The position numbers were made by a program, and so were the translations under genes. This document shows positions 1-53,100 of a DNA stretch of 64,000 bases, one piece after another; the first letter of the stretch is position 1; every line of letters begins with the position of its first letter. The stretch is from Lycium barbarum (lineage: Eukaryota > Streptophyta > Magnoliopsida > Solanales > Solanaceae), in NCBI RefSeq assembly GCF_019175385.1, contig NC_083338.1, positions 61,908,884-61,972,883 on the forward strand, read 5' to 3'. The notes below the pieces were generated by a model. The model searched no databases. It saw only the letters and a list, made by a program, of their open reading frames with translations, and was not told where the DNA came from.

Positions 1-26
1 CAATGAAAAATTTCCGAGGTGTAACA
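1..26 (-). repeat. E1 3' LTR, first 26 bases
   Basis: Read on the minus strand this starts TGTTACACCTCGGAAA, directly after the polypurine tract, and runs off the window edge. The same start is seen in E4 at 30393. Confidence 0.8.
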
Positions 27-12103: not shown

Positions 12104-12680
12104 TGTCACGACCCAACCCCGTAGGCCGTGACTAGTGCTCGATATGGGCACCCAAACACATTTATCAAATGCTATCTCAAAATTTTTTTTTTCAAACGCA
12201 TTCAAGTATATAGCAGAAGCCGACAAGGCTATATTCCACATTTAGGTACCCCAGAATAGTCATAAACACAACAATATGTACAACTGAAGGATCTATACCA
12301 AAAGGGTGGGCTCCGGAACAAAGGAGCACTCCCAAAAGCAGACTATGTACCTAGGCTGGCGGACCTCCACAGTAAGCGTCTGTACCTGCGTGGCATAAAG
12401 CGCAGCCCCCGAAGAAAGAGAGTCAGTACGGAATATGTACTGAGTATGTAAAGCATGGAATACAGAAAATAGAAACATAACTGGAACAACGGTACCAAAG
12501 CAAGTATGCTATCCAAAATACCAGAGTGCTTACCTTCCATACACGAGTCATCTATATATTTATACGACGTGGTCAGAGGCCAGAAGAAATACAATAATTA
12601 CATGAATCATCCTGTGTACCAAAAGCTCACCTACCAAACTCAGGGTGTGCATGACAGGGTTCGTATCTCTTATATGTATT

Positions 12681-13050
12681 TATCAAATAACATGCCCCGA
12701 CCCTTTGTGAGGGGCGCGAAAAATGGAATCATATATGTTAATATCATATATCAAATGTTCATGTATCGTGCCCCGGCCCTTGGTAAGGGACACGGTGAAT
12801 CATATATCAAATATACCAATGTCATGTATCATATATGCAAGTAACGTACCCCGGCCCTTAGGGAGGGGTGCGGTGAATCATATTTCATGTATGTCAATGT
12901 CATGTATCATGCATGCATATAACGTGCCCCGACCCTCTTTTGCGGAACGCGGTGAATGGAGTCATCATATGCCATCCTGGCCACCTCCCCGTAATCATAC
13001 CATGCACATATACGTGACCCGGTCCGCAAGTGAGAGGGACGCGGTGAATA
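12681..13050 (-). repeat. Imperfect tandem repeat with GC hairpins in E3 3' LTR
   Basis: About five degenerate units of roughly 80 bp. Each has CCCCGGCCCTT, a short loop and an AAGGG-like arm, then GCGGTGAATCATAT-like spacer and AT-rich ATGTATCATAT. The units can fold as short hairpins. The 5' LTR copy is at 19207-19580. The same hairpin unit, inverted, recurs three times in E8b (27761-27984). Confidence 0.7.
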
Positions 13051-14382
13051 ATGCAGAGAAGTACGCACGAGAACATATCCTGGCCCGGGCTCAGTGAAAT
13101 CCAAATCAAAGATTGCACGAACAGAGTAGAGCGAAACCACATGCACACAATCAAGACCCGAGATACACACATACTTATATGCAAACACATTATCGGCATC
13201 TGGAGGTCCAGAAACAAGCTTCGGGTCAATCGGAACTGGTAGACGAAAGTTACGAGCGTTCGAAGTACGGAACGCTCCATAAATGTTTCGTAAATCAATT
13301 CTTGTAAAACCAAAGTGTTAGTCATATCAGATATCTTTCGGATGATGTATAGATCAAATTAAGTACAACTTAGCTTCATACGCACATACCATTACATATC
13401 AAGGTATTAATTATATCACTTATTTTATTTTATTTTCTTCTTTTTATTAACAACTAAGGAACATATCAATGGGTCTTTAGATATCGCGCCAACTTCATAT
13501 AGATTAAATCAAATAACTTTCGAAATCATATGTACGTATCATAACATATCAAGCCTCGGTGAAAACATCATACGTGGTGTCGTATTTACAAAATCTTCTT
13601 TACAACATGCTTCATGAAAGTTGGAGATATTATGACTCATAATATTCTTTCCGACACAAATTCTTTATACTTATTTCGTTACTCAATCATGTCGTAAGGT
13701 GGATCATGTCAGGCATACTTCTATCAATATAATTCAGAATCATAGGAAGACTCGGAACATTTTAGCTAGCACTTTAGAAGCGAATTACTCCCGGATATCT
13801 TACGGATCAGACCAAATATAATTTATAGGATCGCGTGTACATATCAAAATATAGATTAAAAACTCAATGGAATAGTAAGACAACCATCGTTTGGTAATCG
13901 GGACAACAACCAAGAGTTTCCTTTAATAATCGCACGGAATTAAGCCAAGTAGAACAATAGAGGAGGATTCGGGAATAGTGGGTCCACCTCGGATCAAGTC
14001 GAGGTGGCGGACATGAATCTCGGATATTAAGGTCTATAGAATCATCCAAGGAAGTTTCGAAGCGATTTGATTATATTTACAAAAGTTTCGGACGTTTGAT
14101 CACTTTTCAACAAAATGTGAGTTTTATGGTTCAATTCAATGGAATGAATAGTACTCGATTTCAAGTTCGGATTTCCATGAACAGAATTGCCCCCGGGGCT
14201 CCGATATCGACCTAGTATACCTAGGACATGCCAAAAGAAGGAATGGGGTAGCCTTACATACCTTCCGCGCTCCTTACGCTTGTCCAAAATCAAACTCCGT
14301 TTCGCCAAAAACCTACAATTGGTCATAAGTGCCAAATGTGAGTTGTGAACTTTTAAGAATTCAATTTAGGTTCATATTTGTC

Positions 14383-14415
14383 TACCGAAATTGCGGCAGC
14401 ATTTCCCCTATAAAT
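14383..14415 (-). promoter_or_regulatory. LTR core promoter-like block, E3 3' LTR
   Basis: On the minus strand: TTTATAGGGGAAATGCTGCC then CGCAATTTCGGTA, i.e. a TATA-like run, the conserved AGGGGAAATGCTGCC and a one-base variant of the CCGAAATTTCGG palindrome. The 5' LTR copy is at 20908-20940. A transcription start here is inferred from recurrence across LTR types. Confidence 0.45.
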
Positions 14416-15772
14416 TCAACACCCCGAGAATTTAACTCGGCCAAATCAACAATAACACCAACAACCAATCTAGCAACATCAATAACCAATTCAAAACGCA
14501 CTCTAGCATCAAGTACTCTTTCTACATAATCCAACAATATTCACTACGTTCACTTTAATGGCTTACCTTCAAGCCAACATCAATGCCTATACACTCAAAT
14601 ACTAGCCCGAACTCATGTCATCAACATTCAAGAGCATTTCAAACAATTCACACAATTTTTCAAACATCCAAAATAATACTCCAACTCACCCGAAATTGCC
14701 CCAAACCCAAGTTCCTCAACTATAACACATTCATTCCTTCCAAATTCATGACTTATACCATTAATCCACACATTAACAATGCAATCCTCACAAATACAAA
14801 AATTATATAAAATTCACATTAATTTCCAAATCAACCCATAACCACCACAACATCACTTTGAGTCGTTAAACTTCCATTTTTCTTCATAGGATCCACAACG
14901 ACGACAACTTAAATACTAACGACGATTTATTCATTCTCAACTACACAAAAGGGGGGGGGGGGCATACGGCCAACACCACACCCATACACAAAGATGATTT
15001 TTCATTCTTTCCTTCACTCTACAACAATCAAAACATGCCAACTAAAGCTAATATGTCACTTTGAGCATCACATACACACACGGCAAAACACCTTCCACAC
15101 GACCCAACTTCAACTTGACTCTTATCATGAATTTCTTCCCTTCTAGCACACAACAACACATATAAACCATTTATAACACATAAAACAAGATTAGAACTCA
15201 CCTTTCCTCTTCAACTTCTGAACTTGCCTAAAGTGGTAGATAGAGAAAACGAGCAATCTAACGCTTCTAACAACACTTCCACGTTAACAAGCGCCTTTCA
15301 ATTAGCAAGTTTGCTTGAAGAAATTAATTTTTGATAGCTCAAAATTGATCTTGAATTTCCAAGGGTTTGGCCGAAATCCCCTTAAGTCTTTCTCTCCATT
15401 TTATCTTCTTGAAGGTTCTTGAAAATGAATAAGGATGACCTCTCTTTATTAATTCATCACATGCCCAAATTTAAGGAAAAAAAAACATGGGCTTGGGCCT
15501 CCCTTTCTAGGCCATGGCCGGCCACCCTACCATCTTGGGCCTTTTGTTCTCTCTTTTTTTTTTTTGAGCCCAATTGATGGCTAAACTTTGTAATTCATGA
15601 AACAAGTTTCCGAAATTCCAATTTTATCCCTTGGCTTTCCTCCGTGTTTCCACATCAATATTTTTCATGAACAACACACACATATATTAATTCAAATCAC
15701 ATATGACCATATTCCTTACAAATCAAAATTATTTCGAATTTTTCCGAATGCGCGAAAATACGGGATATAACA

Positions 15773-15808
15773 TCCTCCCCCCCTTAAGAACATTCATCCT
15801 CGAATGTT
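15773..15808 (-). promoter_or_regulatory. E3 polypurine tract and pre-PPT stem-loop
   Basis: The minus-strand purine tract CTTAAGGGGGGGGAGGA abuts the LTR. The stem-loop at 15789-15808 has one mismatch (AACATTCA opposite CGAATGTT). Confidence 0.78.
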
Positions 15809-16672
15809 CAATTAACCTTAGAGGGGTTCGTGTAATACTTCGGGGAAGTTTCTTTCCTCCCTTCATAACGTTTCTAGCATTATAATTGTTACCTCCTTGT
15901 CTTCCATTTACTTACTTTTCCTTCCTTTCCACGTATCGTCGCATCGGAATCTTCTACCCTTACTGTAGTGAGATTAGTATCAGTTCATTTCATAATATCT
16001 ATACCCTATCCTTTACTTGTCTCTTAACTTTCGTTCGGCTAATATATTTCATATATCTCTACACTGGCTGCTGGGGCCCACCGCCGATCGGTACGGCCAT
16101 AGATGGGATGTTATACGCATACTTACGCATTTATTACCATTTACTCACAAAACACTTCCAAACGCATTATTCAAACTTACCCTAATTCCAGAACTGTATT
16201 GTGTTTCCTTCTTCTTCACCGACCGGGTCTGCTTTGGCATATCCGACCTATCTAGGGTTCCTAACCATTTGGTACATTCTTATTTCCTTTAGGTTACCCC
16301 TGGTTTCCCATCTGCCTTTTATATTTACATTTACGCAAATTTTGGTGTACTTCCCAGGGGGCCACCCATCCCAAAATTGCTCCGCCCCTAGCACGCTTAA
16401 CCCCGAAACTTCCGTGCATTTTGATGCATTAGTGCTGGTATAATCGCGTCGACTGCCTCACACGACCTTTGTCACGCACTTTAAGGCATGTCGGTGTCTT
16501 AACACTTTCCGGAAGGTTCTCGTAGCGGGTCCCACTCCGATCTGGAGAGGATCGTTTATTATTACGAAACTACCGGGTTAGCCCTCCTTTTTGTTTTTTT
16601 GAACAAGCACTTTCATCTGTACATATGACTACCACAGACGGTTTTATCGATTCGGGTCTCATCCCAGTTTTA
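15809..16672 (-). other. E3 non-coding module replacing pol
   Basis: About 860 bp between gag and the polypurine tract, where PR-RT-RNase H-INT would lie. No pol similarity is visible. It aligns by eye with E5 (about 37640-38320) and in part with E7 (about 53650-53970). Shared blocks include ACACTGGCT near 16060, a TTAGGTTACCCC block near 16290, the 5S-like segment (16350-16449) and a GTGGGACCC-like block near 16525. The similarity across three elements of different LTR type argues that the module is inherited and not random filler. Confidence 0.7.
16350..16449 (-). ncRNA. 5S rRNA-like segment in E3
   Basis: On the minus strand this reads like a 5S rRNA gene lacking its last bases. GCGATTATACCAGCACTAAT (16428-16447) resembles the 5S 5' part. 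TTAAGCGTGCTAGGG resembles box A. GATGGGTGGCCCCCTGGGAA resembles box C. Against the plant 5S consensus as I remember it, 16350-16400 matches at about 40 of 51 positions. The middle (16401-16427) is diverged. It is probably a captured copy, not a functional rRNA gene. Whether pol III transcribes it is unknown. Confidence 0.75.
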
Positions 16673-18184
16673 CTAGCAATCGAGGGGGGAAATATATATC
16701 AATACATATTCATTTCGGAAGAAAGTTAATAATATACTTGTAACTGCATCTGGTGGTGCCTCCTGATCCTGTCGGCTGGCCAACGCATACAAGCGGTTTG
16801 AAGGACCACTGGAACTGGGAGCTCCGCCACGACCTCTGCCGCGGCCTGCTGGTATCGGCACACCCTACCGCGTGGGGCGTATAGCTACAGAAGGGAGAGA
16901 CGAGCCAGCAACTGACCCAGTGGGCTGGGCTGAACCACCTGAACCTCCCCTATACGGGCACTCCCTCATAACATGGCCTTGACGGCCGCAAGTAAAACAA
17001 GCACCGGTGGCGCGACGGCACTCTCCCAAATGGCGCCTACCGCACTGGGGACACTGAGGCATAAGCGACCTAGTCTGGCTGAGCCCGCCACTTACCTGCG
17101 AATCGGGAGCCATAGAGCTCTGGCCAGCTCCTGAATATCTGACACTATCAAATCTCTCACCGGTAGGCCGTGGGGGCGCACTTTGCGCTGGCTGAGAAGA
17201 CTGTCTAACATACTGTTGAGGCTGTCCGCCTCGAAACTCCCCAGAGTATCCCATGGACCTGGCCCTCTTGGGCGGCCTCCTGTCTCGATCCCTACTAGGA
17301 TAATCAGCCCTGTGTCGGTCCTTCATACCCTGAGCATAGGCTTGTAGCCGGGCAATATCCATGTCGGTCTGCAATGCCACCGCCATGCAGCCATCAATCA
17401 AATAGCGGTCTAACCCCATCACGTACCGGTGCATCCGGTCAGTCATATCTGCAACTATAGCAGGTGCATACCGGGCCAGAGAAACAAACTCCAAATTATA
17501 CTCACGAACACTCCGACCCCTCTGCTACAGATGCAAAAATTGATCAACCCGCGCCCGCCGTAACTCTGGTGGCAAAAAGTGACGGGTAAAAGCAGCCACG
17601 AACTCGTCCCAAGTAGCTGGGGAAACTCCCTCACCCCTAGATAGCTCCCAGGACTCATACCAGTTAGCGGCAACATCCCGCAATCTGTGCGCGGCCAACT
17701 CGACAGACTCAGTCTCTGAAGCCCTGACCAAGTCCAATGAGCGCCGCATCCCCCAAATGAAGTCATGGCGGTCCTCGTCGGGCTTAGACCCGAAAAACTC
17801 TGGGGGCCCACATAATAGGAACTCTCGAACCCTCAGGCTATCACGCCTGTCATCATCATCCTCATCTCTCCTCCCGCGTCTGCGAGCCTGCCCCGCTACC
17901 AGTGTGGTCAATAACTGCACAGCCTCCCTCAGCGTCCTGTCCTCCGCCCCTGGCTGAGGAGCTGGAGGCTCGGGTGCGGGTACTCGGGCCCCTGGAGCTG
18001 CTGATGGACCTGCTCCAGGCTCCGCCGGTGGTGTAGCAGATCCCTCTGAGTGGGGTACAACCTCGGGCAAATCCTGAACACGAGCCCGGGTAACTCGCTG
18101 CGCCTGACTGGTCTCTCCGACCATCACCTTACCCTTCTGGGAAGCCGTATCCTTCTTCGGAGGCATCACTGAAAAACACAACAA
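16673..18184 (-). pseudogene. gag: E3 gag with truncated protease start
   Basis: One minus-strand frame broken by two nonsense codons. It starts at MPPKKDTASQKGK (an earlier in-frame Met lies six codons upstream). A Pro/Ala-rich linker follows, then the retrotransposon gag core (EFFGSKPDEDRHDFI, LRDVAANWYESWE, FLPPELRRARVDQFLHL). A TAG at 17525-17527 replaces the Gln seen in E6 (FLHLQQRGRS). The frame resumes to RYAPAIVADMTDRMHRYVMG and the zinc knuckles CPQCGRRHLGEC and CFTCGRQGHVMREC (C-X2-C-X4-H-X4-C intact). The second stop is at 16865-16867. The last part (AGRGRGRGG, YALASRQDQE) reaches the protease start but reads YVLIYISP instead of the ALIDPGST active-site stretch and then stops. It would form the particle and bind RNA if intact. 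Confidence 0.88.
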
Positions 18185-18352: not shown

Positions 18353-18370
18353 CCGCTCTGATACCACTTC
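18353..18370 (-). promoter_or_regulatory. E3 primer binding site
   Basis: The minus strand reads GAAGTGGTATCAGAGCGG right after the 5' LTR and is complementary to initiator tRNA-Met. Confidence 0.88.
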
Positions 18371-21300
18371 TGTCACGACCCAACCCCGTAGGCCGTGACT
18401 AGTGCCCGATCTGGGCACCCAAACACATTTATCAAATGCTATCTCTAAATTTTTTTTTCAAACGCATTCAAGTATATAGCAGAAGCCGACAAGGTTATAT
18501 TCCAAATTTAGGTAATTTCCAGAAAAATTTCGGCAGAGTTTCCTTTGTTTTACAGACAATCCAAGATAACCCTGCACACAGAAAATACCAACAAAGGCCA
18601 CAGCGGCCAACAAGGCAACATGTAAACATATGCGGACCAGCCACCGCGGAGAATGGGATCGCCCAAACACAACATATACACACATCCGTACAGAAAGACC
18701 CCAACCCACAAACATGTCTACAGGCCTCTAATACAGACAACAGAATCATATGGCGAGACAGGGCCCCGCCGTACCCCAGAATAGTCATAAACACAACAAT
18801 ATGTACAACTGAAGGATCTGTACCAAAAGGGTGGGCTCCGGAACAAAGGAGCACTCCCAAAAGCAGACTATGTACCTAGGCTGGCGGACCTCCACAGTAA
18901 GCGTTTGTACCTGCGTGGCATAAAGCGCAGCCCCCGAAGAAAGAGGGTCAGTACGGAATATGTACTGAGTATGTAAAGCATGGAATACAGAAAATAGAAA
19001 CATAACTGGAACAACGGTACCAAAGCAAGTATGCTATCCAAAATACCAGAGTGCTTACCTTCCACACACGAGTCATCTATATATTTATACGACGTTGTCA
19101 GAGGCCAGAAGAAATACAATAATTACGTGAATCATCCTGTGTACCAAAAGCTCACCTACCAAACTCAGGGTGTGCATGACAGGGTTCGTATCTCTTATAT
19201 GTATTTATCAACTAACATGCCCCGGCCTTTTGTGAGGGGCGCGGAAAATGGAATCATATATGTTAACATCATATATCAAATGTTCATGTATCGTGCCCCG
19301 GCCCTTGGTAAGGGACACGGTGAATCATATATCAAATATGCCAATGTCATGTATCATATATGCAAGTAACGTACCCCGGCCCTTAGGGAGGGGCGCGGTG
19401 AATCATATTTCATGTATGTCAATGTCATGTATCATGCATGCATATAACGTGCCCCGGCCCTCTTTTGCGGAACGCGGTGAATGGAGTCATCATATGCCAT
19501 CCTGGCCACCTCCCCGTAATCATACCATGTACATATACGTGCCCCGGTCCGCAAGTGAGAGGGACGCGGTGAATAATGCAGAGAAGTACGCACGAGAACA
19601 TATCCTGGCCCGGGCTCAGTGAAATCCAAATCAAAGATTGCACGAACTGAGTAGAGCGAAACCACATGCACACAATCAAGACCCGAGATACACACATACT
19701 TATATGCAAACACATTATCGGCATCTGGAGGTCCAGAAACAAGCTTCGGGTCAATCGGAACTGGTATACGAAAGTTACGAGCGTTCGAAGTACGGAACGC
19801 TCCATAAATGTTTCGTAAATCAATTCTTGTAAAACCAAAGTGTTAGTCATATCAGATATCTTTCAGATGATGTATAGATCAAATTAAGTACAACTTAGCT
19901 TCATACGCACATACCATTACGTATCAAGGTATTAATTATATCACTTATTTTATTTTATTTTCTTCTTTATATTAACAACTAAGGAACATATCAATGGGTC
20001 TTTTGATATCGCACCAACTTCATATAGATTAAATCAAATAACTTTCGAAATCATATGTACGTATCATAACATATCAAGCCTCGGTGAAAACATCATACGT
20101 GGTGTCGTATTTACAAAATCTTCTTTACAACATGCTTCATGAAAGTTGGAGACATTATGACTCATAATATTCTTTCCGACACAAATTCTTTATACTTATT
20201 TCGTTACTCAATCATGTCGTAAGGTGGATCATGTCAGGCATACTTCTATCAATATAATTCAGAATCATAGGAAGACTCGGAACATTTTAGCTAGCACTTT
20301 AGAAGCGAATTACTCCCGGATATCTTACGGATCAGACCAAATATAATTTATAGGATCGCGTGTACACATCAAAATATAGATTAAAAACTCAATGGAATAG
20401 TAAGACAACCATCGTTTGGTAATCGGGACAACAACCAAGAGTTTCCTTTAATAATCGCACGGAATTAAGCCAAGTAGAACAATAGGGGAGGATTCGGGAA
20501 TAGTGGGTCCACCTCGGATCAAGTCGAGGTGGCGGACATGAATCTCGGATATTAAGGTCTATAGAATCATCCAAGGAAGTTTCGAAGCGATTTGATTACA
20601 TTTACAAAAGTTTCGGACGTTTGATCACTTTTCAACAAAATGTGAGTTTTATGGTTCAATTCAATGGAATGAATAGTACTCGATTTCAAGTTCGGATTTC
20701 CATGAACAGAATTGCCCCCGGGGCTCCGATATCGACCTAGTATACCTAGGACATGCCAAAAGAAGGAATGGGGTAGCCTTACATACCTTCCGCGCTCCTT
20801 ACGCTTGTCCAAAATCAAACTCCGTTTCGCCAAAAACCTACAATTGGTCATAAGTGCCAAATGTGAGTTGTGAACTTTTAAGAATTCAATTTAGGTTCAT
20901 ATTTGTCTACCGAAATTGCGGCAGCATTTCCCCTATAAATTCAACACCCCGAGAATTTAACTCGGCCAAATCAACAATAACACCAACAACCAATCTAGCA
21001 ACATCAATAACCAATTCAAAACGCACTCTAGCATCAAGTACTCTTTCTACATAATCCAACAATATTCACTACGTTCACTTTAATGGCTTACCTTCAAGCC
21101 AACATCAATGCCTATACACTCAAATACTAGCCCGAACTCATGTCAACAACATTCAAGAGCATTTCAAACAATTCACACAATTTTTCAAACATCCAAAATA
21201 ATACTCCAACTCACCCGAAATTGCCCCAAACCCAAGAACCTCAACTATAACACATTCATTCCTTCCAAATTCATGACTTATACCATTAATCCACACGTTA

Positions 21301-22299
21301 ACAATGCAATCCTCACAAATACAAAAATTATATAAAATTCACATTAATTTCCAAATCAACCCATAACCACCACAACATCACTTTGAGTCGTTAAACTTGC
21401 ATTTTTCTTCATAGGATCCACAACGACGACAACTTAAATACTAACGACGATTTATTCATTCTCAACTACACAAAAGGGGGGGGGGGGGGGCATACGGCCA
21501 ACACCACACCCATACACAAAGATGATTTTTCATTCTTTCCTTCACTCTACAACAATCAAAACATGCCAACTAAAGTTAATACGTCACTTTGAGCATCACA
21601 TACACACACGGCAAAACACCTTCCACACGACCCAACTTCAACTTGACTCTTATCATGAATTTCTTCCATTCTAGCACACAACAACACATATAAACCATTT
21701 ATAACACATAAAACAAGATTCGAACTCACCTTTCTTCTTCAACTTCTCAACTTGCCTAAGGTGGTAGATAGAGAAAACGAGCAATCTAACGCTTCTAACA
21801 ACACTTCCACGTTACCAAGCGCCTTTCAATTAGCAAGTTTGCTTGAAGAAATTAATTTTTGATAGCTCAAAATTGATCTTGAATTTCCAAGGGTTTGGCC
21901 GAAATACCCTTAAGTCTTGCTCTCCATTTTATCTTCTTGAAGGTTCTTGAAAATGAATAAGGATGACCTGTCTTTATTAAGTCATCACATGCCCAAATTT
22001 TTAAAAAAACAAACATGGGCTTGGGCCTCCCTTTCTAGGCCATGGCCGGCCACCCTACCATCTTGGGCCTTTTGTTCTCTCTTTTTTTTTTTGAGCCCAA
22101 TTGATGGCTAAACTTTGTAATTCATGAAACAAGTTTCCGAAATTCCAATTTTATCCCTTGGCTTTCCTCCGTGTTTCCACATCAATATTTTTCATGAACA
22201 ACACACACATATATTAATTCAAATCACATATGACCTTATTCATTATAAATCAAAATTATTTCGATTTTTTCCGAATGCGCGAAAATACGGGATATAACA
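18371..22299 (-). repeat. E3 5' LTR
   Basis: 3929 bp, the longest LTR here. It is near-identical to 12104-15772 by eye apart from about 265 extra bp (18512-18776) and a longer G run (15 bases, 21476-21490). Cassette at 18911-18971, promoter-like block at 20908-20940, hairpin repeats at 19207-19580. Confidence 0.92.
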
Positions 22300-32764: not shown

Positions 32765-35315
32765 TGTCACGACCCAACTCCCTAGGCCGCGACTAGTGTC
32801 CGTGCTGGACACCCAAACGTACCCAATAACCCAAATTAGCAAACGACAGAATATTTTCAAATATAAAAGTCACTTGGCGTTAGAAATGATCATAAATGAA
32901 CCGACGCAGTACATGGAAGCCGGTGAGGCTGTCACAAATCATATCATACCCAAACATATACAGAACCCACACAAGTATGTCTACAGACCTCTACAGAACA
33001 TGACAGACTCATGAGACGGGACAGGGCCCCGTCATACCCCTGAATAGTGTACATATATATAATAGCGGCAGACTGTACCAATATACAGGCTCTGAACAAG
33101 AGAGCGCTCCCAATATAGCAGAATAGATGTCCTAGGTAGGCGGTCAGCAAATCTGTCTTCTGCACCTGCGCGGCATGAAAACACAGCCCCGAAGAAAGGG
33201 GGTCAGTACGAAATATGTACTGAGTATGTAAAGCACAGAATGTAGTAAAAAAAGTCATCATCAAAGCAGAAGGTACAGAAAATGGACAGAATATCCAGAT
33301 TAGCAAAATACTGATCATAAAGCATAAATAGTATTTGTTGAAAACATATGTCGTACCTGGTCCCATTGCGGAACAAGATTTTAACCGAAACAGAACTTAC
33401 AGAGAAGTGAATGTGACATCCGAAGTATCAAATGCATATTTTCAAAACATGAGTAGTGTGTACAGAAACATATATCACATCATATCCGGCCCCTACCAAG
33501 GGGCTCAGCAAACAGAACGTGGCCACCCCCCTACGCTGGTGCCACCATACATAAGGAACAGAATAGGGGATAACCCCGTCACATAACATATCATATCAGA
33601 TGGCCATATCAGATCATATCATATCAGAATGTGTGTACATGGCACAACATACTCCAAAACCCATGTACATGTATACCTGCCCCCTCACATCGAGGCACGG
33701 CGAACAATGCAGTGGAATACGCTTGACAACATATCCTGGCCCGGGCTCAGTGGGGGAAACATTGAGGCATCCACGAACGGAGTAGTGAGCAACTAATTGC
33801 AATAAAAATAACATCTATATTTCCAGAGACTCAATGAGGCATATCGAATGACAAATCAAATCAATGAAATCGGACGGAATCATAGTAAATGAATTTCGAA
33901 TGTCATAATGGGTTACGGAGGCATAATCTTTTCTGAGATCGTTTCCAAGATCCAAAACAATTTATAAGACTTAACGGAATATTTAAAACAATTTTTGAAT
34001 AAGAGATAGAGGAGTAGTTCAAACGTTTCCTTTAAAGCAGTTCGAAGACAAGTCATAAATACAAAAGGGTAAAATCGGAAATAGTGGGCCCACCTCGGGA
34101 CAAGCAAGGCGGTGGGCTCAAATTACATATTTTAAGCTTATGGGGTCACCTACAAAGGTTCTACGGACGTTCTATAGCTTTACAAGTAGTTTAGGGAAAG
34201 TTTGCATGATTATCAAGAATACAAACCAAAAGGGCTCAATCTTACTGAAGGAAAAAGCGAGATTTTCAATTGCGGATTCCGATGGGCAGAAAGTCTTTCG
34301 AGGCCCGAATCCGATTCTAATACACTTAGGCATGCCAAAAGAAGGATCGGGGTAGCTTTACATACCTTTCAAGCTCCTTACGCCTTTCCAAGCTCACTTC
34401 CCGTTTCGTCAAAAATCTGCAAATGATCATATTTACCAATTGTGATTTATAGATTCTACGAATTCAACTTAACTCATATTTGTCTACCGAAATTTCGGCA
34501 GCACCTCCCCTATACATATATCACCCCCGAGAATTTAACTCGGCCAAAACAATCAACAACAACCCAACAACAACATCAACAACAACAACAATCACACTAA
34601 ACACAATATAACACAACTAGCTATCTTTCCAACACAATGCCATAACCTTCACTTCAACCTTAAATTCCAAACTAATCTCAATGGTTTCACATTCATCATC
34701 AATCTAGAGCATCACAACATAATTTAGAAGCATTTCATATCGTTTCCTCAAACTAATCTTACCTTTTTCTCCAATCTCCTTCACTCAAACATGTTGTCAT
34801 ATTGAAGAAACAAGGGCTCTTTCTTCCCAAACAATTGCACCATGTTGTAGAGGACCCTTAATATAGTAGGAATACCACAAGAAAAATATTTTTGGAGGAA
34901 GATTTAGAGTAGCTATTTTTCCATGGCCATGGCCGAAAATGGAGTGGTCTTATTTTTGCTCAAGGTTTCTTGATTCTTCTATGAGTTAAAGATGACTTAG
35001 TCATCTTTTAAGTCCACAAATTAAAACCCACACATGAGCCTTGGACCATTAAGGGGCCGGCAACCCCTCTACAATTGGGCCTCAATTTAGTTAAAAAAAA
35101 ATTCCAAGCCAAATTGGTCAAAATTCTTATTTTGTAATTCCCGAAACTAATTTCCAAAATTCTCATTTTTGCCCTTGGCCTCATTCCGTATTTCCACACC
35201 AATATTTTTCATGAAAATCACACATATATAAATTCAAATCAACATATGAACTTATTTCTTACAAATTGAAACAACTTTCCAATTTTCCAATTGTGCGAAA
35301 GCACGGGATATAATA
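32765..35315 (-). repeat. E5 3' LTR
   Basis: 2551 bp. About 560 bp present in the other copy (41487-42050 region) is missing near 34757, where CATTTCATATCGTTTCCTCAAA meets CTAATCTTACC. Cassette at 33166-33226, promoter-like block at 34485-34521. Confidence 0.92.
34485..34521 (-). promoter_or_regulatory. LTR core promoter-like block, E5 3' LTR
   Basis: Minus strand: TATGTATAGGGGAGGTGCTG then CCGAAATTTCGGTA, with the perfect 12-base palindrome. The 5' LTR copy is at 41217-41253. The donor-like AAAGGTATGTAAAGC is downstream near 34366. Confidence 0.5.
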
Positions 35316-35351
35316 TCCTCCCCCCCTTTAGAACATTCGTCCTCGAATGTT
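35316..35351 (-). promoter_or_regulatory. E5 polypurine tract and pre-PPT stem-loop
   Basis: The purine tract (complement TAAAGGGGGGGGAGGA) abuts the LTR. The perfect AACATTCG/CGAATGTT stem is at 35332-35351. Confidence 0.78.
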
Positions 35352-35456: not shown

Positions 35457-37250
35457 TTACCTGGAGGGATAGCGAACAACTGAGGATATTTCTTCTTCAT
35501 CTTCCCAGGTCATCTCCTCCCTGTTATTATTATTCCGCCACAGCACCTTAGCGGAAGCTACATCTTTGTTCTGTAATTTTCTTACTTGGCAATCCAGAAC
35601 GGCTACAGGCTGCTCTTCGTACGATAGTTCCTCCGTCACCCGAATATTATTTGCTGGAAATATTCTAGGAGGATCGCCGACACATTTTCGAAGCATGGAT
35701 ACGTGAAATACCGGATGTACTTCTTCCAAATCAGATGGTAGGTCTAGCCCGTAAACGACATTCTCAATTCTTCGAACAATCTGATAAGGTCAGATATATC
35801 GCGGATTGAACTTACTCTTTTTACCGAATCACATTATGCCTTTCATAGGCGATACTTCAAAAATACCCAATCACTAACCTGGGATTCCAACGGTCGACGC
35901 CGTTTATCAGAATATGACTTCTGTCGACCCTAAGCTGCTAATTGTCTCTCTCGGATAAGTTTCACCTTATCAACTGCCTATTGGATCATATCTGGGCCTA
36001 TTAATTCTGTTTCGCCAATATCAAACTAGCTGATGGGTGACCTGCATTTTCTGTCATACAAAGCCTCGTATTAAGCTAGAATGGTAGCGGTTATTATAAG
36101 CAAACTCGATCAACGGCAGATGATCGTCTCGGCTACCTCCGAAATCAATAATACAGGCTCGCAACATATCTTCTAGCATTTGTATAGTGTGCTCGGCCTG
36201 TCCGTTACTCTGAGGATGGAATACTGTGCTTGGACTTACCTGAGCCCCTAATCCTTCCTGAAACGAATCTCCAGAAATTAGTCATAAACTGAGTATCTCT
36301 GTCAATGACAATAGATATAGGAGCTCCGTGGAGTCTCATTATTCCTTTAATACATATAGTCTGGCATAATCCCCAACCGAATAAGTGGTTCTGACGGGGA
36401 GAAAATGGGCTGATATTTGTCAGTTTATCAACTATACCACATATGGAAATCATACTTCCGTGGAGCGCGAGGCAAACCCGTAATGAGATCCATACTAATT
36501 ATTTCCCACTTCTAAGTCAGAATTTTCATTTCCTGAAACAGTCCACCCGGTTTCTGATACCCAATTTTAACTTGCTGACAATTTGGGCACTGGTCAACGA
36601 GTCTTACGATGTCGGGCACACATAATCTGCCTCGGTATAACAATACTCATCTGGTAAAACCTCGAGCTGGATCTTTTCCTTGTCAAAGGTTGTATCTCTA
36701 TACGATACTAGAATAGAATCCTCAAACTGACGCTGTTTTACCTTTCCCATGATCGATGATTCAGTAACTTCTTCGGACAAAATTCCAATATCTTCAGAAC
36801 CGACCAAACGGACTCTAAGGCTAGCTGACTAATGAGTTTTACAGACCAATTCTTTACTTCTGAATGTATGCCGGTCAAGCCGTCCGTAGACTCACGACTA
36901 AGTGCGTCTGTCACAGCTTTAGCTTTTCTGGGGTGGCACAAAATATTAACATCATAATCCTTCAATAATTGAACCATCTTCTCTGTCGCGAATTCGACTC
37001 CCTTTTTCTTAAAACGTATACTGGCAGCCCTTAGGATCCGTATAAATATCAACGCGCACCCCACGTAAGTAATACCGCCATATCTTTAAAGCATGAATCA
37101 CCATAGCTAATTCCAGACCATGGGCGAAATAATTTTTCCTCGTGCGGTCTGAGCTGCCAAGGGACATAGGCCATAATCTGACCATTTCCAGACAACTACA
37201 TATTTCAGTCGATGTCGAAGGCCTAGACCAGTCCTTTATCGCTTCAATTT
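35457..37250 (-). pseudogene. pol: E5 pol remnant: RNase H end, integrase, chromodomain
   Basis: Minus-strand pol spread over three frames with many stops and small gaps. From upstream: LLKDYDVNILCHPRKAKAV and DALSRES (RNase H end, near 36870-36970), KQRQFEDSILVSYRD (linker), CPNCQQ-like sequence near 36585, VDKLTNISPF and MRLHGAPISIVIDRDTQFMT (integrase core with the second Asp, 36290-36340), a run of integrase C-terminus at 35740-36060, then HPVFHVSMLRKCVGDPPRIF and KVLWRNNNNREEMTWEDEEE (chromodomain tail, 35457-35729). Upstream of about 37250 RT similarity fades out. It is more eroded than the pol of E1 or E4. Confidence 0.8.
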
Positions 37251-38100
37251 TCTGTATGTCAGTTATTTTCGTTCATGCTTAATTTATTTTACTTTCATTC
37301 GCTCCCCCTCCTTGGGGTTGTACTTACACCATATTCGAATCTTTTCCTTCTAACCTACAACTTGATTATCTTCGTACGAAACCTTAACAGAATCATAATT
37401 ACATAGTACACAATCTTACTCGATAGTTGGCACTCAAGTGATATAATTAGGGTAGTTGCTTGTCTCATAGTAACCACATACTTTCTTCATACCCATTCCT
37501 TATCTGTCGTCCTATTTTCTCGACGATCGAATTATTTGATATTCACATAATTCATCATTTCATGTCGTAAGTTTTTCTTTGCCCTGTACTATTCCATTTT
37601 AGTTTGCTTTCGCAATTAACTTCGTGCTTTGCCCGTCGACTCTTTCAGAGGCTCCGCTTAATTACGTTTCTCACGGTTCACTTCTCCTGACATTTGGATC
37701 TTCCAATCTCAACCGGTAGCGAAATAAGTATCAATCTATTTCGTAACATTGGTACCACACCTTTCCCCTTTTCTCGTACATTCTCTCCAGTTAATGTTTT
37801 TCGTATATGACAACACTGGCTATTAGGGTTCACCAATCAATCGACATCATCATAAATGGGGGGGCCTACACATACGCATATATATCACTGCCATTCTTTT
37901 ACAATACATCTTCAATCACTTGTTCGAATTTACTCTAATTTTAGGGCTGCGCTGTTTTTTCTTTCTTTTTAACAATCCAATCCGTCTCAGCTCGTGTGAC
38001 CCCTATAAAATTTCTAGCCATTCCACACATCCTAATTCCATTTAGGTTACCCCGAATTTCCTATTCGTCTCTCATATCTATGTTGCGAAAATTTTGTACA
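37251..38100 (-). other. E5 non-coding stretch between pol remnant and 5S-like segment
   Basis: No gene. It is collinear with E2 interior on the other strand (for example CCTTGGGGTTGTACTTACAC near 37311 and CTTCGTACGAAACCTTAACA near 37370), and from about 37640 to 38100 with the module of E3. It contains a short G run at 37857-37863. Confidence 0.65.
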
Positions 38101-38198
38101 TTTCCCAGGGGGTCACCCATCCCAGAATTGCTCTGGCCCTAGCACGCTTAACCTTACAACTTTAATGCATTTAGGCACGTTAAGACCGGTATAATTAC
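38101..38198 (-). ncRNA. 5S rRNA-like segment in E5
   Basis: Minus strand: TTAAGCGTGCTAGGGC (box A-like), then AGAGCAATTCT, then GGATGGGTGACCCCCTGGGA (box C-like) ending at 38101. The core 38101-38151 matches the remembered plant 5S consensus at about 43 of 51 positions. The 5' part, AATTATACCGGTCTTAA near 38180-38195, is weaker. It lies between the leader and the pol remnant, whereas in E3 and E7 it lies between gag and the PPT. Confidence 0.75.
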
Positions 38199-39399
38199 AT
38201 TGATTGCCCCGCACAGCCTTTGTCACTTAATTTAAGATAAATCGGGGTCTTAACAACTTTTCAAAATGTTCTCATAGTGGGTCCCACCCCGACCTAGCGA
38301 GAATTCTTTTACCTTTCTGACTATATGGTTGCTGTGTCGCCCCTTGTACGTCTTCAATACTTACCTCCACGTATATATATAATTCTAGACAGCCCACGAG
38401 TTTAAGTCTGTATCCCACAAATTCCATCTCCAATTAGTCGATGGAAACTGATGAAATGCTACTGTAAGGCATTTTACAATCATCAGCACGAGAAAGCTAA
38501 AGTCTGACGAACTTCGCGGAATCTTTTAGTACTTAATTCACATAATTACCTCCATATTTATATATATGAGCCGTGAGCAAACCACTCAATTCCCGCCTGC
38601 TTGTCATACGCTTTGTATTCTTTCCATTAGAGGAAACTTGATCGTTTGACATTTTTGCCCTTCCACATATTTTTGCCCTTCACGTGGGCTATGCTAAAAC
38701 AAAATGGGGTTAGAACATATTTCTCGTCCCTTCAATTAAATTATGAATTCTCTACTCGTATGTGCTTTCTCGAGATAAAATTTTCCCGATAAGGGTAATG
38801 CTTCTTACAAATGACATGGAGGGTACCTCTTAAAATTTTAATCCACCATTATAGATTTATCCTATCGGTATCGACCTTCAATACAGGTTAAAAATGTATA
38901 TCTCATTTCCCTTTTCGTATTCCTAGAAAAATTTGGGCAGAGGTTCCTCTGTATTTCTTACTATACCAAAACCTGTACACAGGAAATACCAACCATGCCT
39001 CACAGGGTCAACACATATACGTCTATACATATCATATCACGTCGCATCACAGCCACACGGGGCTAAAAATTCCAAATAAAAAGTATCAGAATGCCGAGGC
39101 TTACCTCACATGCCCAACCCGAACTGCACCTGCTACACTTTCCATGTTTGTTTCCCTTTTTAATGTTCGACTTTATGTTTTAACCGTACTTCAGAATACC
39201 TTACCCAGCATACGTCTTTCATACCATTGCTTACCGGAGTACTGTGTAGCTTCCAATATCAGCAGTCGCTGTCTTACGTCGATACCGTTCTCCAGCTGCA
39301 ATCAAGGGTTAGTAAAGAAAGAAACTCATTTCCTACAGCTGGCTCTATCGCACGATCTAAGAATCAAAGAAAGGTAACACCCTAAATGTCCTGTAGCCT
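38199..39399 (-). other. E5 non-coding leader region
   Basis: No gag or other gene is visible. A GTGGGACCC block at 38278-38288 is shared with E3. Stretches at 38390-38640 are collinear with E2 5480-5720. The part nearest the primer site matches the common leader (CTGTAGCCTCCTG). Confidence 0.65.
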
Positions 39400-39496: not shown

Positions 39497-42400
39497 TGTC
39501 ACGACCCAACTCCGTAGGCCGCGACTAGTGTCCGTGCTGGACACCCAAACGTACCCAATAACCCAAATTAGCAAACGACAGAATATTTTCAAATATAAAA
39601 GTCACTTGGCGTTAGTAATGATCATAAATGAACCGACGCAGTACATGGAAGCCGGTGAGGCTGTCACAAATCATATCATACCCAAACATATACAGAACCC
39701 ACACAAGTATGTCTACAGACCTCTACAGAACATGACAGACTCATGAGACGGGACAGGGCCCCGTCATACCCCTGAATAGTGTACATATATATAATAGCGG
39801 CAGACTGTACCAATATACAGGCTCTGAACAAGAGAGCGCTCCCAATATAGCAGAATAGATGTCCTAGGTAGGCGGTCAGCAAATCTGTCTTCTGTACCTG
39901 CGCGGCATGAAAACACAGCCCCGAAGAAAGGGGGTCAGTACGAAATATGTACTGAGTATGTAAAGCACAGAACGTAGTAAACAAAGTCATCATCAAAGCA
40001 GAAGGTACAGAAAATGGACAGAATATCCAGATTAGCAAAATACTGATCATAAAGCATAAATAGTATTTGTTGAAAACATATGTCGTACCTGGTCCCATTG
40101 CGGAACAAGATTTTAACCGAAACAGAACTTACAGAGAAGTGAATGTGACATCCGAAGTATCAAATGCATATTTTCAAAACATGAGTAGTGTGTACAGAAA
40201 CATATATCACATCATATCCGGCCCCTGCCAAGGGGCTCAGCAAACAGAACGTGGCCACCCCCCGACGCTGGTGCCACCATACATAAGGAACAGAATAGGG
40301 GATAACCCCGTCACATAACATATCATATCAGATGGCCATATCAGATCATATCATATCAGAATGTGTGTACATGGCACAACATACTCCAAAACCCATGTAC
40401 ATGTATACCTGCCCCCTCACATCGAGGCACGGCGAACAATGCAGTGGAATACGCTTGACAACATATCCTGGCCCGGGCTCAGTGGGGGAAACATTGAGGC
40501 ATCCACGAACGGAGTAGTGAGAAACTACTTGCAATAAAAATAACATATATATTTCCAGAGACTCAATGAGGCATATCGAATGACAAATCAAATCAATGAA
40601 ATCGGACGGAATCATAGTAAATGAATTTCGAATGTCATAATGGGTTACGGAGGCATAATCTTTTCTGAGATCGTTTCCAAGATCCAAAACAATTTATAAG
40701 ACTTAACGGAATATTTAAAACAATTTTTGAATAAGAGATAGAGGAGTAGTTCAAACGTTTCCTTTAAAGCAGTTCGAAGACAAGTCATAAATACAAAAGG
40801 GTAAAATCGGAAATAGTGGGCCCACCTCGGGACAAGCAAGGCGGTGGGCTCAAATTACATATTTTAAGCTTATGGGGTCACCTACAAAGGTTCTACGGAC
40901 GTTCTATAGCTTTCCAAGTAGTTTAGGGAAAGTTTGCATGATTATCAAGAATACAAACCAAAAGGGCTCAATCTTACTGAAGGAAAAAGCGAGATTTTCA
41001 ATTGCGGATTCCGATGGGCAGAAAGTCTTTCGAGGCCCGAATCCGATTCTAATACATTTAGGCATGCCAAAAGAAGGATCGGGGTAGCTTTACATACCTT
41101 TCAAGCTCCTTACGCCTTTCCAAGCTCAGTTCCCGTTTCGTCAAAAATCTGCAAATGATCATATTTACCAATTGTGATTTATAGATTCTACGAATTCAAC
41201 TTAACTCATATTTGTCTACCGAAATTTCGGCAGCACCTCCCCTATACATATAGCACCCCCGAGAATTTAACTCGGCCAAAACAATCAACAACAACCCAAC
41301 AACAACATCAACAACAACAACAATCACACTAAACACAATATAACACAACTAGCTATCTTTCCAACACAATGTCATAACCTTCACTTCAACCTTAAATTCC
41401 AAACTAATCTCAATGGTTTCACATTCATCATCAATCTAGAGCATCACAACATAATTTAGAAGCATTTCATATTGTTTCCTCAAATTATACACACGATATA
41501 CATAATATACAAACTTTCCGCCAAAGTCATAATTCATCCAAAAACTCCTAATCTTTGGCATACGTATTCATAACATGTTTCCATCTTCCAAATCTATCAA
41601 TGATCATCATAATTTGCAACCTAACAACTTCATTTTCATAATGTCATAAAATCGTACTAAAACGACATAAGCTTCTACATTCCATTTCAATGCAAACTTA
41701 TATCATTTTATCTTCATTTACATTGCAAGCATCACAACAACACAACTAACACATTAAACAAAATTAATTCACTCCCATTCCAACTCCAGTATACCACACG
41801 GCCAAATGCTCTTTTTATCAATTCAACCAAATTTATTCAACTTTCATTCTCAATATGAATTCCATCATACTCACAACTAGAATACAACATAATTTCAATT
41901 GATCATTGGCATACAATGCATGCATACACACGGCCATACACTCTATTCCATACCCACTTTGAAATCTTCCATTTTTCCATACAATCAACTCATTCCCACT
42001 TACTACAACACAAACAAAACTTCATAACACAATAAAAAGAGATGAACTCTTACCTTTTTCTCCAATCTCCTTCACTCAAACATGTTGTCATATTGAAGAA
42101 ACAAGGGCTTTTTCTTCCCAAACAATTGCACCATGTTGTAGAGGACCCTTAATATAGTAGGAATACCACAAGAAAAATATTTTTGGAGGAAGATTTAGAG
42201 TAGCTATTTTTCCATGGCCATGGCCGAAAATGGAGTGGTCTTCTTTTTGCTCAAGGTTTCTTGATTCTTCTATGAGTTAAAGATGACTTAGTCATCTTTT
42301 AAGTCCACAAATTAAAACCCACACATGGGCCTTGGACCATTAAGGGGCCGGCAACCCCTCTACAATTGGGCCTCAATTTAGTTAAAAAAAAAAATTTCCA

Positions 42401-42608
42401 AGCCAAATTGGTCAAAATTCTTATTTTGTAATTCCCGAAACTAATTTCCAAAATTCTCATTTTGCCCTTGGCCTCATTCCGTATTTCCACACCAATATTT
42501 TTCATGAAAATCACACATATATAAATTCAAATCAACATATGAACTTATTTCTTACAAATTGAAACAACTTTCCAATTTTCCAATTGTGCGAAATCACGGG
42601 ATATAATA
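39497..42608 (-). repeat. E5 5' LTR
   Basis: 3112 bp, carrying the 560-bp segment missing from the 3' LTR. Otherwise it is near-identical by eye. Both LTRs start TATT on the minus strand. Cassette at 39898-39958. Confidence 0.92.
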
Positions 42609-50161: not shown

Positions 50162-53100
50162 TGTCACGACCCGACTAGGGGCCGTGACGAGTACCCGATA
50201 CTTGTACCGAGCTCCCTTATCTATCATATTACCTTTACCTCTTAGCAAGCCGTGTAAACAGAGCCATTTTTTTGTATTCTTTGACATTAGCAGCGTCATT
50301 CTGAACATAAACTAGTAAACTTCGTTGTTACTTTATACAACAATCATGCCGAGACACCATACATATATCTGTACCTGACTGACTATACATATCTGTCTAC
50401 GAGCCTCTAGACATAGTACACTTATACATAGAAAGGGCCGAATACTGTCGTGCCCGAATATACATACACACAAAATAGTACCGCGGGAGTGAGGCTCCGG
50501 AACAACTGGAGCACTGTAGAGTACCGCTGGTAGAGCTCCTAAGAATCACGTCCACCTGTCTGCTGACCTGCGCGGCATGAAACGCAGCGTCCACAAGAAG
50601 GGACGTCAGTACGAATAGTGTACCGAGTATGTAAGGCATAAAAGATAATATAAACAGTAACCTAGAGTATGATTTACAATATCATGGAGTCATAGGACAT
50701 ATAATGAGGCAGGAAGGTAACCTGTACGTGGGAAGGCCCCTTTTCAGGTCGGCTGTCATGTAGGATTGTCTTTTCACCTTTGAAACGTTTCTTTTCATAG
50801 GCATAGGAATTAGCATTTATATATTACTTATTCTCGTGTACAGAAAACAGTACATTTCAGTAAACAATATCTTTTATTCACATTTACAGACGCCGAATAC
50901 ATCGGCTCTCCCAACCCCCTCCCCAACGGTGTCCCAACACATTACATCATATATATATCATACATTAGATATATACAGACGCCGCGTACGACTCTCCCAT
51001 ACCCCGCGTCCGGGCATCCCGCATCCAGGATGGAATCCAGCTGAATCAGGTGGTAATATAACAGTGGCACTTCCCCTTCCCCATATACATATACATGTAC
51101 ATTTACTTCTCTCTTATACATACACATGTCCCATATACAAGTACTTACCTTATATATATACAAACCCATACACATCTACTTGTAGCACCTAACTAGCATG
51201 CACGGGAGTCCAAGGAAAGTTATGCCCATCGGAGTGACGTAAAGTCGGTAGCCTCCGATTACATTATAGAGTACTTGTGATCACCTTGTCTCACCTTGAA
51301 GGGACGAGTATTTTAAGGCGAGACTATCAACGGAGAGTAGTATTACAGTAAACGTAGAATGAAATCGTGGGCATCATAGATGACAATCATAGGCTTTGGA
51401 GTCTTAGAAAGTAAAGTTATAGCTAGGGAATATAAATACGATTCAAAAATTAGTTTATCAATTTCATATTCACATTGGACCCTTAGCTTAAAAATCTTAG
51501 TCGTAGAATCGTTCCGGTCGTACTTGTCATAGGTACATTCTCTTGTCTAACATTGTCATTATCATTATCCCCATAGAAACATTCTCGTTAGAGTAGTTAT
51601 AGTACTTATCATTCGGTAATGAGGTCGGGATCAAAAGTCCCCCTTGGATTTACTTTAAGTAAGTCAACCAAGGCTATAGGAAAATCCGAGAGTAACGGGC
51701 CCACCTCGGGCCGGATGAGGTAGCGTGTACTAGTTGCATATGTTACATGTCGTGTCATTACTTGTGAGGGTTCTAGGGTAATCGGGTCCCATTTATGCAA
51801 ATTATAGGGGTCTAGGAGATTTTTCCGACCATTGGCACACTTTCTAGTTCAATTCTATTGAACAAAAGGTAGAAAACTTTAGGTGCGGATTCCGGGGAAC
51901 AGAGTTGTCCCCGAGGCTCGTACCCAACTTATTTCTGCTAAGACATGCCATAGAAAGAAGGGTGAAGCCTTACATACCTCTTCCGCTCCTTTTTGCTATT
52001 CCAAATTCACGTCGCAATCTCGTCAAAATCTGCAATTTGGTCATAGTTACCAAAACTCTTATTAGCATACTTAGAGTTAGAATCTTAAGGAAACACTTGG
52101 CTACCGAAATTTCGGCAGCATTTCCTCTGTACATACACCATCCTCAACATTCAACATAGCCAAATTCTCAACCAACACAATCCGGGGATTCAAACCCGGC
52201 CAAACTATTAACATAATCAACAATCGCACTAGCAATTCACATATTTCATCCAAGATGCATGATTTCAATTTATTACTTTCTTCAAAACCTTCCGACTTCA
52301 ATGAACACGATAACAACCTTATAGTATATATTCCAACGACATCATACCAATATCATTACATGCTATCCATGCAAGAACATTATTCTTCAATATACATAAT
52401 CTTCCAATTACCAATACTTTACCAAACTTACCAAGTCTTTACTTGCAATATGCAATCTACAACACAACAACTAAAACACTAAATATAACTTGCTCATTAT
52501 TCTTCAACAATTCAACACATATACACGACTACATATGCCATATACACGACTCCAACATGCATACACCACTACAATCTCTCCAAACTCATTCAACTTCCAT
52601 TTTCCACATATCATTCACAACAATAACAACCAAACATTAATTAAAATAATTGAAACATGACTCCTACACACACATATATATACACGGCCATATACTATAT
52701 TCCTCTCCTTCATGAATTTCATTCATTTTAGCATACTACAACACATATAAACCATGTATAACACATAAAACAAGATTGAAATTCACCTTTCTTCTTCAAC
52801 TCCTCACTTGCCTATCTCTTGGCAACTTGTATGATTTTGAATCTTTCTTGCTCCAACAACAACTCTACCTTGTTAAGCACCCTTTGCTTGGTAGGAAATG
52901 ATTTTTAAGAGAATTTTTATCAAATTTCCTTGGAATTTCTACTCTTGGCCGAAAGGCCTCCAAGGTTTTCTCCTTCTTTTCTTTCTTTGGTTTTCTTGAA
53001 GTTTCTAGACAACTAGGTGATAAAGATGACTTAGTCATCTATTTAATTCACACAATACAATTCACTTTGGGCCTAGCCCATAAGCATGGCCGGTTGGGCC

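What the first reader, a model, noticed from the sequence alone, without database searches (positions are those of the whole stretch)
16350..16449. 5S rRNA-like segment in the pol-replacing module of E3
Seen: the minus strand carries a 5S 5' part (GCGATTATACCAGCACTAAT), box A (TTAAGCGTGCT) and box C (GATGGGTGGCCCCCTGGGAA) in the right order and spacing for almost the whole 5S gene, between gag and the PPT. Known: 5S has an internal pol III promoter of box A, IE and box C; Cassandra elements carry 5S in their LTRs, and TFIIIA genes carry a 5S mimic exon. Inference: a Ty3-type element captured 5S sequence outside its LTRs. It could be a second promoter, a TFIIIA or RPL5 binding RNA, or a packaging device. 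I know of no description of this arrangement, but I could not search.
Basis: partly seen in the sequence, partly recalled or inferred. Interest (0 to 1): 0.9.

Follow-up and report, generated by a model that had tools for sequence, protein, structure and literature searches.

The report
5S promoter inside goji retrotransposons
A large group of parasitic DNA elements in the goji genome carries a captured piece of the 5S ribosomal RNA gene in the middle of the element, and evolution has kept mainly its two promoter boxes, which suggests an unrecognised use of the Pol III promoter machinery.

Summary
The window is Lycium barbarum. Window 16349-16451(-) carries 5S nt 1-103, sense, inside E3, a non-autonomous Ty3/chromovirus-type element with TSD, between gag and PPT. 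Two further elements in the window (E4, E5) carry a homologous module; 9,124 exact matches of an element-specific signature occur genome-wide (reversed-pattern control 0), against 501 of the host-5S form. Similarity to host 5S genes starts at +1 and stops near nt 103, which suggests one capture, perhaps from 5S RNA. Since then box A (GTTAAGCGTGCT) and box C (GATGGGTGACCCCCTGGGAA) have stayed equal or nearly equal to the host gene, while spacers, flanks, helices I and V and loop E G75 drifted. Distant families share little besides PBS leader, 5S module and PPT/LTR start. Best reading: a DNA-level docking site for TFIIIA/TFIIIC in the internal region, needed in cis; not a 5S RNA mimic, and not the promoter of the genomic RNA as in Cassandra. 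Pol III transcription is unshown: no universal terminator, -1 C or upstream box. Literature searches found no description. New variant of a known kind.

The parts
16349..16451 (-). 5S rRNA-derived segment of E3 (5S nt 1 to 103)
16390..16401 (-). box A of E3, GTTAAGCGTGCT (5S nt 51-62)
16351..16371 (-). box C region of E3, GGATGGGTGGCCCCCTGGGAA (5S nt 81-101)
15965..16552 (-). 5S module of E3, homologous to 37716-38304 of E4 at 67.5%
18371..22299 (-). E3 5' LTR (TSD GTCTA outside)
12104..15772 (-). E3 3' LTR (TSD GTCTA outside)
18355..18366 (-). E3 PBS TGGTATCAGAGC (initiator-Met type, recalled)
17525..18184 (-). E3 gag ORF, first part (Retrotrans_gag), ended by an in-frame stop
16865..17494 (-). 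E3 gag, continuation in the same frame, with zinc knuckle
15773..15785 (-). E3 polypurine tract AAGGGGGGGAGGA
38088..38202 (-). 5S-derived segment of E4 (Rfam match 20.7 bits); box A 38141-38152, box C 38102-38122
39497..42608 (-). E4 5' LTR (TSD CCTAC outside; holds an insertion of about 0.56 kb)
32765..35315 (-). E4 3' LTR (TSD CCTAC outside)
35526..37266 (-). E4 relics of RT end, RNase H, integrase and chromodomain, downstream of the 5S module
35316..35328 (-). E4 polypurine tract
53780..53889 (-). 5S-derived segment of E5 (Rfam match 24.2 bits); box A 53835-53846, box C 53796-53816
55758..58938 (-). E5 5' LTR (TSD GTGTG outside)
50162..53332 (-). E5 3' LTR (TSD GTGTG outside)
54026..55558 (-). 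E5 gag, one open frame of 510 aa
53333..53345 (-). E5 polypurine tract

Best explanation
SHOWN: a 5S rRNA sequence (nt 1 to about 103) sits in the internal region of non-autonomous chromovirus-type LTR retrotransposons of Lycium, where protease-RT is missing. It is present in thousands of copies on several backbones, with and without recognisable gag, and its box A and box C are kept almost letter for letter while most of what lies around them drifted. INFERRED: one capture; the selected thing is the DNA internal control region, a docking site for TFIIIA and then TFIIIC/TFIIIB, needed in cis by elements mobilised in trans. Since the site lies 1.3-1.9 kb downstream of the 5' LTR in E3-E5 it cannot start the genomic RNA as in Cassandra. 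The likeliest uses are (i) keeping the copy accessible or insulated so that Pol II can fire from the LTR, or (ii) making a short sense Pol III RNA from the middle of the element. INFERRED origin: reverse transcriptase switched to a 5S RNA near nt 103, ran off its 5' end at nt 1 and returned to the element RNA.
For: Box A differs between the E3, E4 and E5 families by 1-10% and box C by 2-7%, against 28-63% in the flanks and 5S nt 1-26; within-family divergence is 0-10% throughout (57 distinct copies of 72 loci). Box A left free except its first G: 39 element-type strings, sorted by eye, among 84 listed with letters: 28 intact, 11 with one change, 0 with more; identity to host 97% against 59% in the spacer. 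Box C left free except its last G: of 9,843 loci with box A core and AGNAAT (control 1), 9,124 (92.7%) keep GATGGGTG. The boxes equal those of the host 5S genes L093/L094. No 5S-RNA-type constraint: G75 in 0 of 23, helix I pairs 45%, V 55%, each helix equal to shuffled columns. Not coding: E5 has a stop in each of the three sense frames of the box A-C stretch (read by eye). Among 12 representatives the 5S module is found in 12, the PBS leader in 11, the PPT/LTR start in 7 with the flanks held. Sharp start at 5S +1, end near 103. Cassandra shows the same pattern of kept boxes and variable spacers (PMC10853983, passages).
Against: No expression or binding data. T-run of 4 or more downstream in 9 of 23 copies (A-runs in 14 of 23), C at -1 in 1 of 23, no shared upstream box; by family, T-runs at nt 102-140 in 18 of 26 E3, 12 of 13 E4 and 1 of 18 E5 copies. 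IE positions vary. 10 of 13 E4 copies have a changed last letter of box A. One of the other 45 strings (C1:3915808) looks by eye like a copy with most of box A deleted, though none of the 45 scores above shuffles. Helix III stays 84% paired with double changes (34-41 in 19 of 23, 31-46 in 8, 29-48 in 5) and IV 97%, so part of an RNA hairpin could matter. The 20 diverse loci were picked with a pattern that fixes parts of both boxes. One genome only.
Confidence: 0.6

Rival explanations
1. RNA-level function: the segment in the genomic RNA mimics 5S RNA and binds TFIIIA or RPL5 for export, splicing control or packaging.
For: Sense orientation in 11 of 11 representatives whose PBS leader was found; helix IV hairpin sequence kept; helix III paired in 84% of cells with double changes at three pairs (all three run from G-C to A-T, which C-to-T decay on both strands could also give); plant TFIIIA genes carry a 5S mimic exon (recalled).
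Against: Loop E G75 kept in 0 of 23; helix I 45% and V 55% paired; no pairing above shuffled columns; box A is kept while its helix II partner strand drifts in E4 and E5.
Confidence: 0.15
2. Productive internal Pol III promoter: a short sense RNA of about 110-120 nt is made from each active copy and is itself the selected product.
For: Box A and box C at the 5S spacing; T4-5 at nt 112-115, close to the old 5S 3' end, in E4, L073, L080, L082, L083, L085, L086 and L092, and T-runs at 102-140 in 18 of 26 E3 and 12 of 13 E4 copies.
Against: T-run of 4 or more absent in 14 of 23 representatives, C at -1 in 1 of 23, no common -28 box; T-run in 1 of 18 E5 copies.
Confidence: 0.25
3. Passive passenger: 5S was captured by accident and hitch-hikes with successful elements.
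For: RNA capture by template switching is plausible; the three insertions in the window are young.
Against: Box-limited conservation across families that differ by 28-63% elsewhere and in over 9,000 copies.
Confidence: 0.07
4. Repeated gene conversion or re-capture from 5S genes or Cassandra keeps the boxes host-like.
For: Boxes equal the host gene.
Against: Letters between the boxes are element-specific (AGNAAT; host AGTAGT) in 9,124 loci, so a conversion tract would have to skip them.
Confidence: 0.05
5. A Cassandra or SINE3 insertion sits in the element.
For: Both carry 5S-type promoters (PMC10886601).
Against: Similarity stops at 5S +1 and about nt 103, and the flanks belong to the module shared by the families; dispersed loci that I take for Cassandra read TTGGGCCAGAGTAGTAATA, by eye farther from the basal copy L089 than the host gene is.
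Confidence: 0.03

Closest known systems
Cassandra (TRIM with 5S promoter in the LTRs; PMC10853983, PMC7215508, passages)
   Same: 5S-derived control region in a non-autonomous plant LTR element; boxes kept, spacers variable.
   Different: Here the segment is internal and single, not in the LTRs; E3-E5 span 8.8-10.2 kb with 2.5-3.9 kb LTRs, chromovirus-type backbone, two of three with gag; the site cannot start the genomic RNA.
Ajax / TRIMp3 (PMC10886601, sections read)
   Same: Partial 5S sequence limited to box A, IE and box C; RNA fold not kept.
   Different: Ajax: nemerteans, 421-434 bp, segment in the LTR.
TR-GAG and LARD elements (definitions recalled; names seen in the listing)
   Same: Large non-autonomous LTR elements with gag only (E3, E5) or without recognised gag.
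   Different: No 5S control region is part of those definitions.
P5SM exon of plant TFIIIA genes (recalled)
   Same: 5S-like sequence outside a 5S gene.
   Different: There the RNA fold is what binds RPL5; here fold features are lost and DNA boxes are kept.

Membership tests
5S rRNA gene (Rfam RF00001) | score over gathering cut-off 38 bits | tested here: not met
   E3 32.2, E4 20.7, E5 24.2 bits; relatives L089, L088, L087 do pass, 3 of 11 element loci scanned
5S rRNA gene (Rfam RF00001) | 5S fold with loop E and helix I | tested here: not met
   G75 0 of 23; helix I pairs 45%
Cassandra | 5S sequence within both LTRs | tested here: not met
   5S lies in the internal region in E3, E4, E5
Cassandra | miniature element, no coding domains | tested here: not met
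   LTRs of 2.5-3.9 kb; gag in E3 and E5
Cassandra | conserved 5S boxes A and C with variable spacers | tested here: met
Cassandra | Pol III transcription | not testable with these tools
   no RNA data held
LTR retrotransposon | two LTRs, PBS, PPT, 5-bp TSD | tested here: met
   E3 GTCTA, E5 GTGTG, E4 CCTAC; the E4 PBS has one mismatch
Ty3/chromovirus backbone (Tekay/Del, recalled) | Ty3 capsid-like gag and chromodomain integrase in the clan | tested here: met
   gag in E3 and E5; integrase and chromodomain relics in E4. Not shown in one and the same 5S-bearing window element
Ty3/chromovirus backbone (Tekay/Del, recalled) | placement by an RT tree | not tested
   no RT core in the 5S-bearing loci examined
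TR-GAG | LTR element with gag and no pol | tested here: met
   E3 and E5: no RT or integrase hit. Not met by E4, which has no gag hit and has pol relics
Autonomous element | RT core present | tested here: not met
   57 of 94 loci searched, 51 with protein hits, none overlapping RT residues 449-609 of the window pol; flanks held were limited, so an autonomous carrier elsewhere is not excluded

The most novel reading that the evidence does not exclude
A Pol III control region is a further cis-acting part of a large retrotransposon clan, besides PBS and PPT: it is not the promoter of the genomic RNA but a docking site for TFIIIA/TFIIIC that helps long, trans-mobilised elements escape silencing, place themselves in the nucleus or choose targets. 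With over 9,000 signature copies against about 500 of the host-5S form, the clan may also be a large genomic sink for TFIIIA.
Probability: 0.35. Interest if true: 0.85.

Novelty: new variant of a known kind. Interest (0 to 1): 0.76.

Why it matters
In the papers found, 5S-promoter capture by LTR elements is described only for miniature elements with the segment in the LTR. Here it sits inside long Ty3-type elements, is retained across backbones, and shows which letters are selected. That makes it directly testable whether Pol III factors serve retrotransposons in ways other than starting the genomic RNA. It also warns that counts of 5S-like loci in Lycium can be dominated by element copies (9,124 against 501 signature matches).

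Tried and rejected
Rejected: chance similarity; coding constraint on the island (E5 has stops in all three sense frames, read); a selected complete 5S RNA fold; embedded Cassandra (by eye). Led nowhere: viral and prokaryote collections hold no match to a 39-place version of the signature; a conserved terminator or upstream box was sought and not found in common. The box-spacing search did not complete (with gap 14-24; with gap 14-26), so constancy of spacing rests on the sampled loci and on patterns that fix it. A search with 3 mismatches did not complete. Copy-level decay was not modelled for CpG bias; five of the 11 single changes in box A are at its CpG. A label of mine was wrong: region 38375-39341 was called E4gag, but one search finds no gag similarity in E4. 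Corrected on re-check: the two E3 gag ORFs lie in one frame, split by a stop. Not done: an RT tree, other Solanaceae, expression.

Full report
WHAT IS THERE. The minus strand of window 16349-16451 matches the 5S rRNA gene from nt 1 to 103 (77/103 by blastn; Rfam 5S model 1-120, 32.2 bits, E 3.2e-4 in a 2 kb search, under the cut-off of 38; no hit at gathering threshold in the whole window). The window comes from Lycium barbarum: contig lengths of its 1.67-Gb genome equal those of L. barbarum records. The segment lies in E3, an insertion with LTRs 18371-22299 and 12104-15772, TSD GTCTA, PBS TGGTATCAGAGC and PPT AAGGGGGGGAGGA; LTR divergence K2P 0.016 (about 0.6-1.1 My at recalled rates). E3 has a Ty3-type gag, interrupted by an in-frame stop, and no RT or integrase hit.

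NOT ALONE. The same search found 5S-like stretches at 38152-38102 and 53846-53796, both minus (Rfam 20.7 and 24.2 bits). They belong to E4 (TSD CCTAC, K2P 0.009) and E5 (TSD GTGTG, K2P 0.010; gag of 510 aa in one frame). The three elements span 10.2, 9.8 and 8.8 kb and share a module of 0.3-0.66 kb around the 5S. In E3 and E5 it follows a gag-type frame that ends near the start of protease; in E4, which has no gag hit, it precedes relics of RT end, RNase H, integrase and chromodomain. E6, whose leader and gag are 88% like E3, and E2 have no 5S.

GENOME. E3-, E4- and E5-type segments each return the maximum of 40 scored copies, at 95-100%, 97-100% and 92-100% identity, out of 3,242, 2,673 and 3,036 first-look candidates. 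Of 28 E3-type loci held (8, the window copy among them, and 20), 26 show the gag C part and 28 the PPT block. Of 20 loci fetched, 12 are E5-type (12 show gag, 12 the PPT block) and 8 E4-type (5 show the E4 PPT block; 8 show RNase H/integrase relics). A 35-place signature in which the host's AGTAGT reads AGNAAT occurs 4,581 + 4,543 times (reversed-pattern control 0); the host form AGNAGT occurs 312 + 189 times (control 0), including a 5S array on C6.

WHAT IS KEPT. Between the three families (26 + 13 + 18 distinct copies; 15 identical fragments of 72 loci dropped), box A differs by 0.10/0.014/0.094 and box C by 0.022/0.068/0.060 (pairs E3-E4, E3-E5, E4-E5), against 0.28-0.42 in the left flank, 0.38-0.63 in 5S nt 1-26, 0.21-0.44 in nt 27-50, 0.15-0.60 between the boxes, 0.28-0.42 at nt 102-119 and 0.39-0.40 farther right; within families 0-0.10 everywhere. 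In the window the only runs of 8 or more columns invariant across E3, E4 and E5 are GGTTAAGCGTGCT, GATGGGTG and CCCCCTGGGAA. Most E4 copies read GTTAAGCGTGCC (10 of 13). With box A left free except its first G, 84 of the 100 places listed show letters; 39 are element-type by eye, with box A intact in 28 and one change in 11; identity to host 97%, spacer 59%. None of the other 45 scores above shuffles against the representatives, but one, C1:3915808, looks by eye like a copy that lost most of box A. The pattern itself is loose: 14,976 matches, control 3,088. With box C left free except its last G, 9,124 of 9,843 keep GATGGGTG. For 23 representatives (20 picked with the signature, so parts of the boxes are fixed, plus E3-E5), host 8-mers outside the boxes survive in 0-5 of 23, against 15 (nt 89-96, one letter fixed) and 13 (nt 93-100, none fixed) in the 3' part of box C; unfixed nt 51-54 average 0.99.

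DNA RATHER THAN RNA FOLD. G75, the bulged G of loop E (recalled), is kept in 0 of 23; pairing is 45% in helix I, 72% in II, 84% in III, 55% in V and 97% in IV, no better than with shuffled columns; double changes do occur in helix III (34-41 in 19 of 23, 31-46 in 8, 29-48 in 5), all from G-C to A-T. Against a classical Pol III gene: T-runs of 4 or more downstream in 9 of 23 (A-runs in 14), C at -1 in 1 of 23; T-runs at nt 102-140 in 18 of 26 E3, 12 of 13 E4 and 1 of 18 E5 copies. So the selected unit looks like the internal control region itself. Box A and C as TFIIIA contacts are recalled; the box names and the canonical C box AGGATGGGTG appear in PMC10853983 (passages).

ORIGIN AND SPREAD. 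Similarity to the host gene L093 rises from 25% (-9..0) to 68% (1..10) and falls to 38% at 101-110. A start at the RNA 5' end with an internal 3' end suits template switching onto 5S RNA; this is inference. Shared element letters argue for one capture, but the signature used for sampling fixes some of them. In a tree of the module (midpoint root, for drawing only), the host genes fall beside L089, L077, L088 and L076 (supports 86-99), while E3, E4, E5, L073, L075, L080, L082, L083, L086 and L092 form a 100/100 group; 8 of 22 inner branches are open. Of the nine new loci fetched with long context, three (L073, L075, L080) show gag and six do not. Across these nine and E3-E5, the 5S module is found in 12, the PBS leader in 11 (not L076) and the PPT/LTR start in 7, downstream flanks being limited; close pairs share more, distant pairs little else.

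HOW IT PROBABLY WORKS. Shown: presence, position, copy number, box-specific conservation. Inferred: TFIIIA/TFIIIC docking at the DNA, needed in cis. Because the site lies 1.3-1.9 kb downstream of the 5' LTR in E3-E5, it cannot start a genomic RNA with PBS and both LTR ends, unlike Cassandra. Kojima argues that TRIMp3 elements stay short because of Pol III processivity (PMC10886601, discussion section); E3-E5 are 8.8-10.2 kb, which again points away from genomic-RNA transcription by Pol III. I favour accessibility or insulation over a short RNA product, but the evidence does not separate them.

KNOWN OR NEW. Eight searches of the open-access library showed Cassandra and Ajax as 5S-bearing LTR elements, both with the segment in the LTR, and no paper with Lycium barbarum, LTR retrotransposon and 5S rRNA together (0 papers). 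Subscription papers are not covered, and only listings were seen for most hits. I read the outline and two sections of PMC10886601 and passages of PMC10853983, PMC7215508, PMC7076952 and PMC11963269.

Noticed in passing
window 44309-63925: Tandem LTR-internal-LTR-internal arrangement of E6 (two internals 98% alike) with E5 inserted in the shared middle LTR and part of an E5 LTR in the next: looks like unequal recombination after the E5 insertion.
   Followed up: partly
window 24515-26544: Adjacent direct duplication of about 1,016 bp, 98.7% identical.
   Followed up: no
window 1824-12098: E2, plus-strand LTR element with no gag or RT hit, a 1.1-kb leader region 78% like that of E4, and integrase C-terminus plus chromodomain.
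   Followed up: partly
genome C1 25235370-25263418: Five signature matches and a sixth with box C free, about 5.3-5.7 kb apart on one strand: probable tandem array of a 5S-module element.
   Followed up: no
genome C5 75.99-76.20 Mb: Dense run of diverged host-type 5S matches on one strand, perhaps a decaying 5S array.
   Followed up: no
genome C6 25.569-25.588 Mb: 5S gene array with about 390-bp repeat whose strand flips near 25.584 Mb.
   Followed up: no
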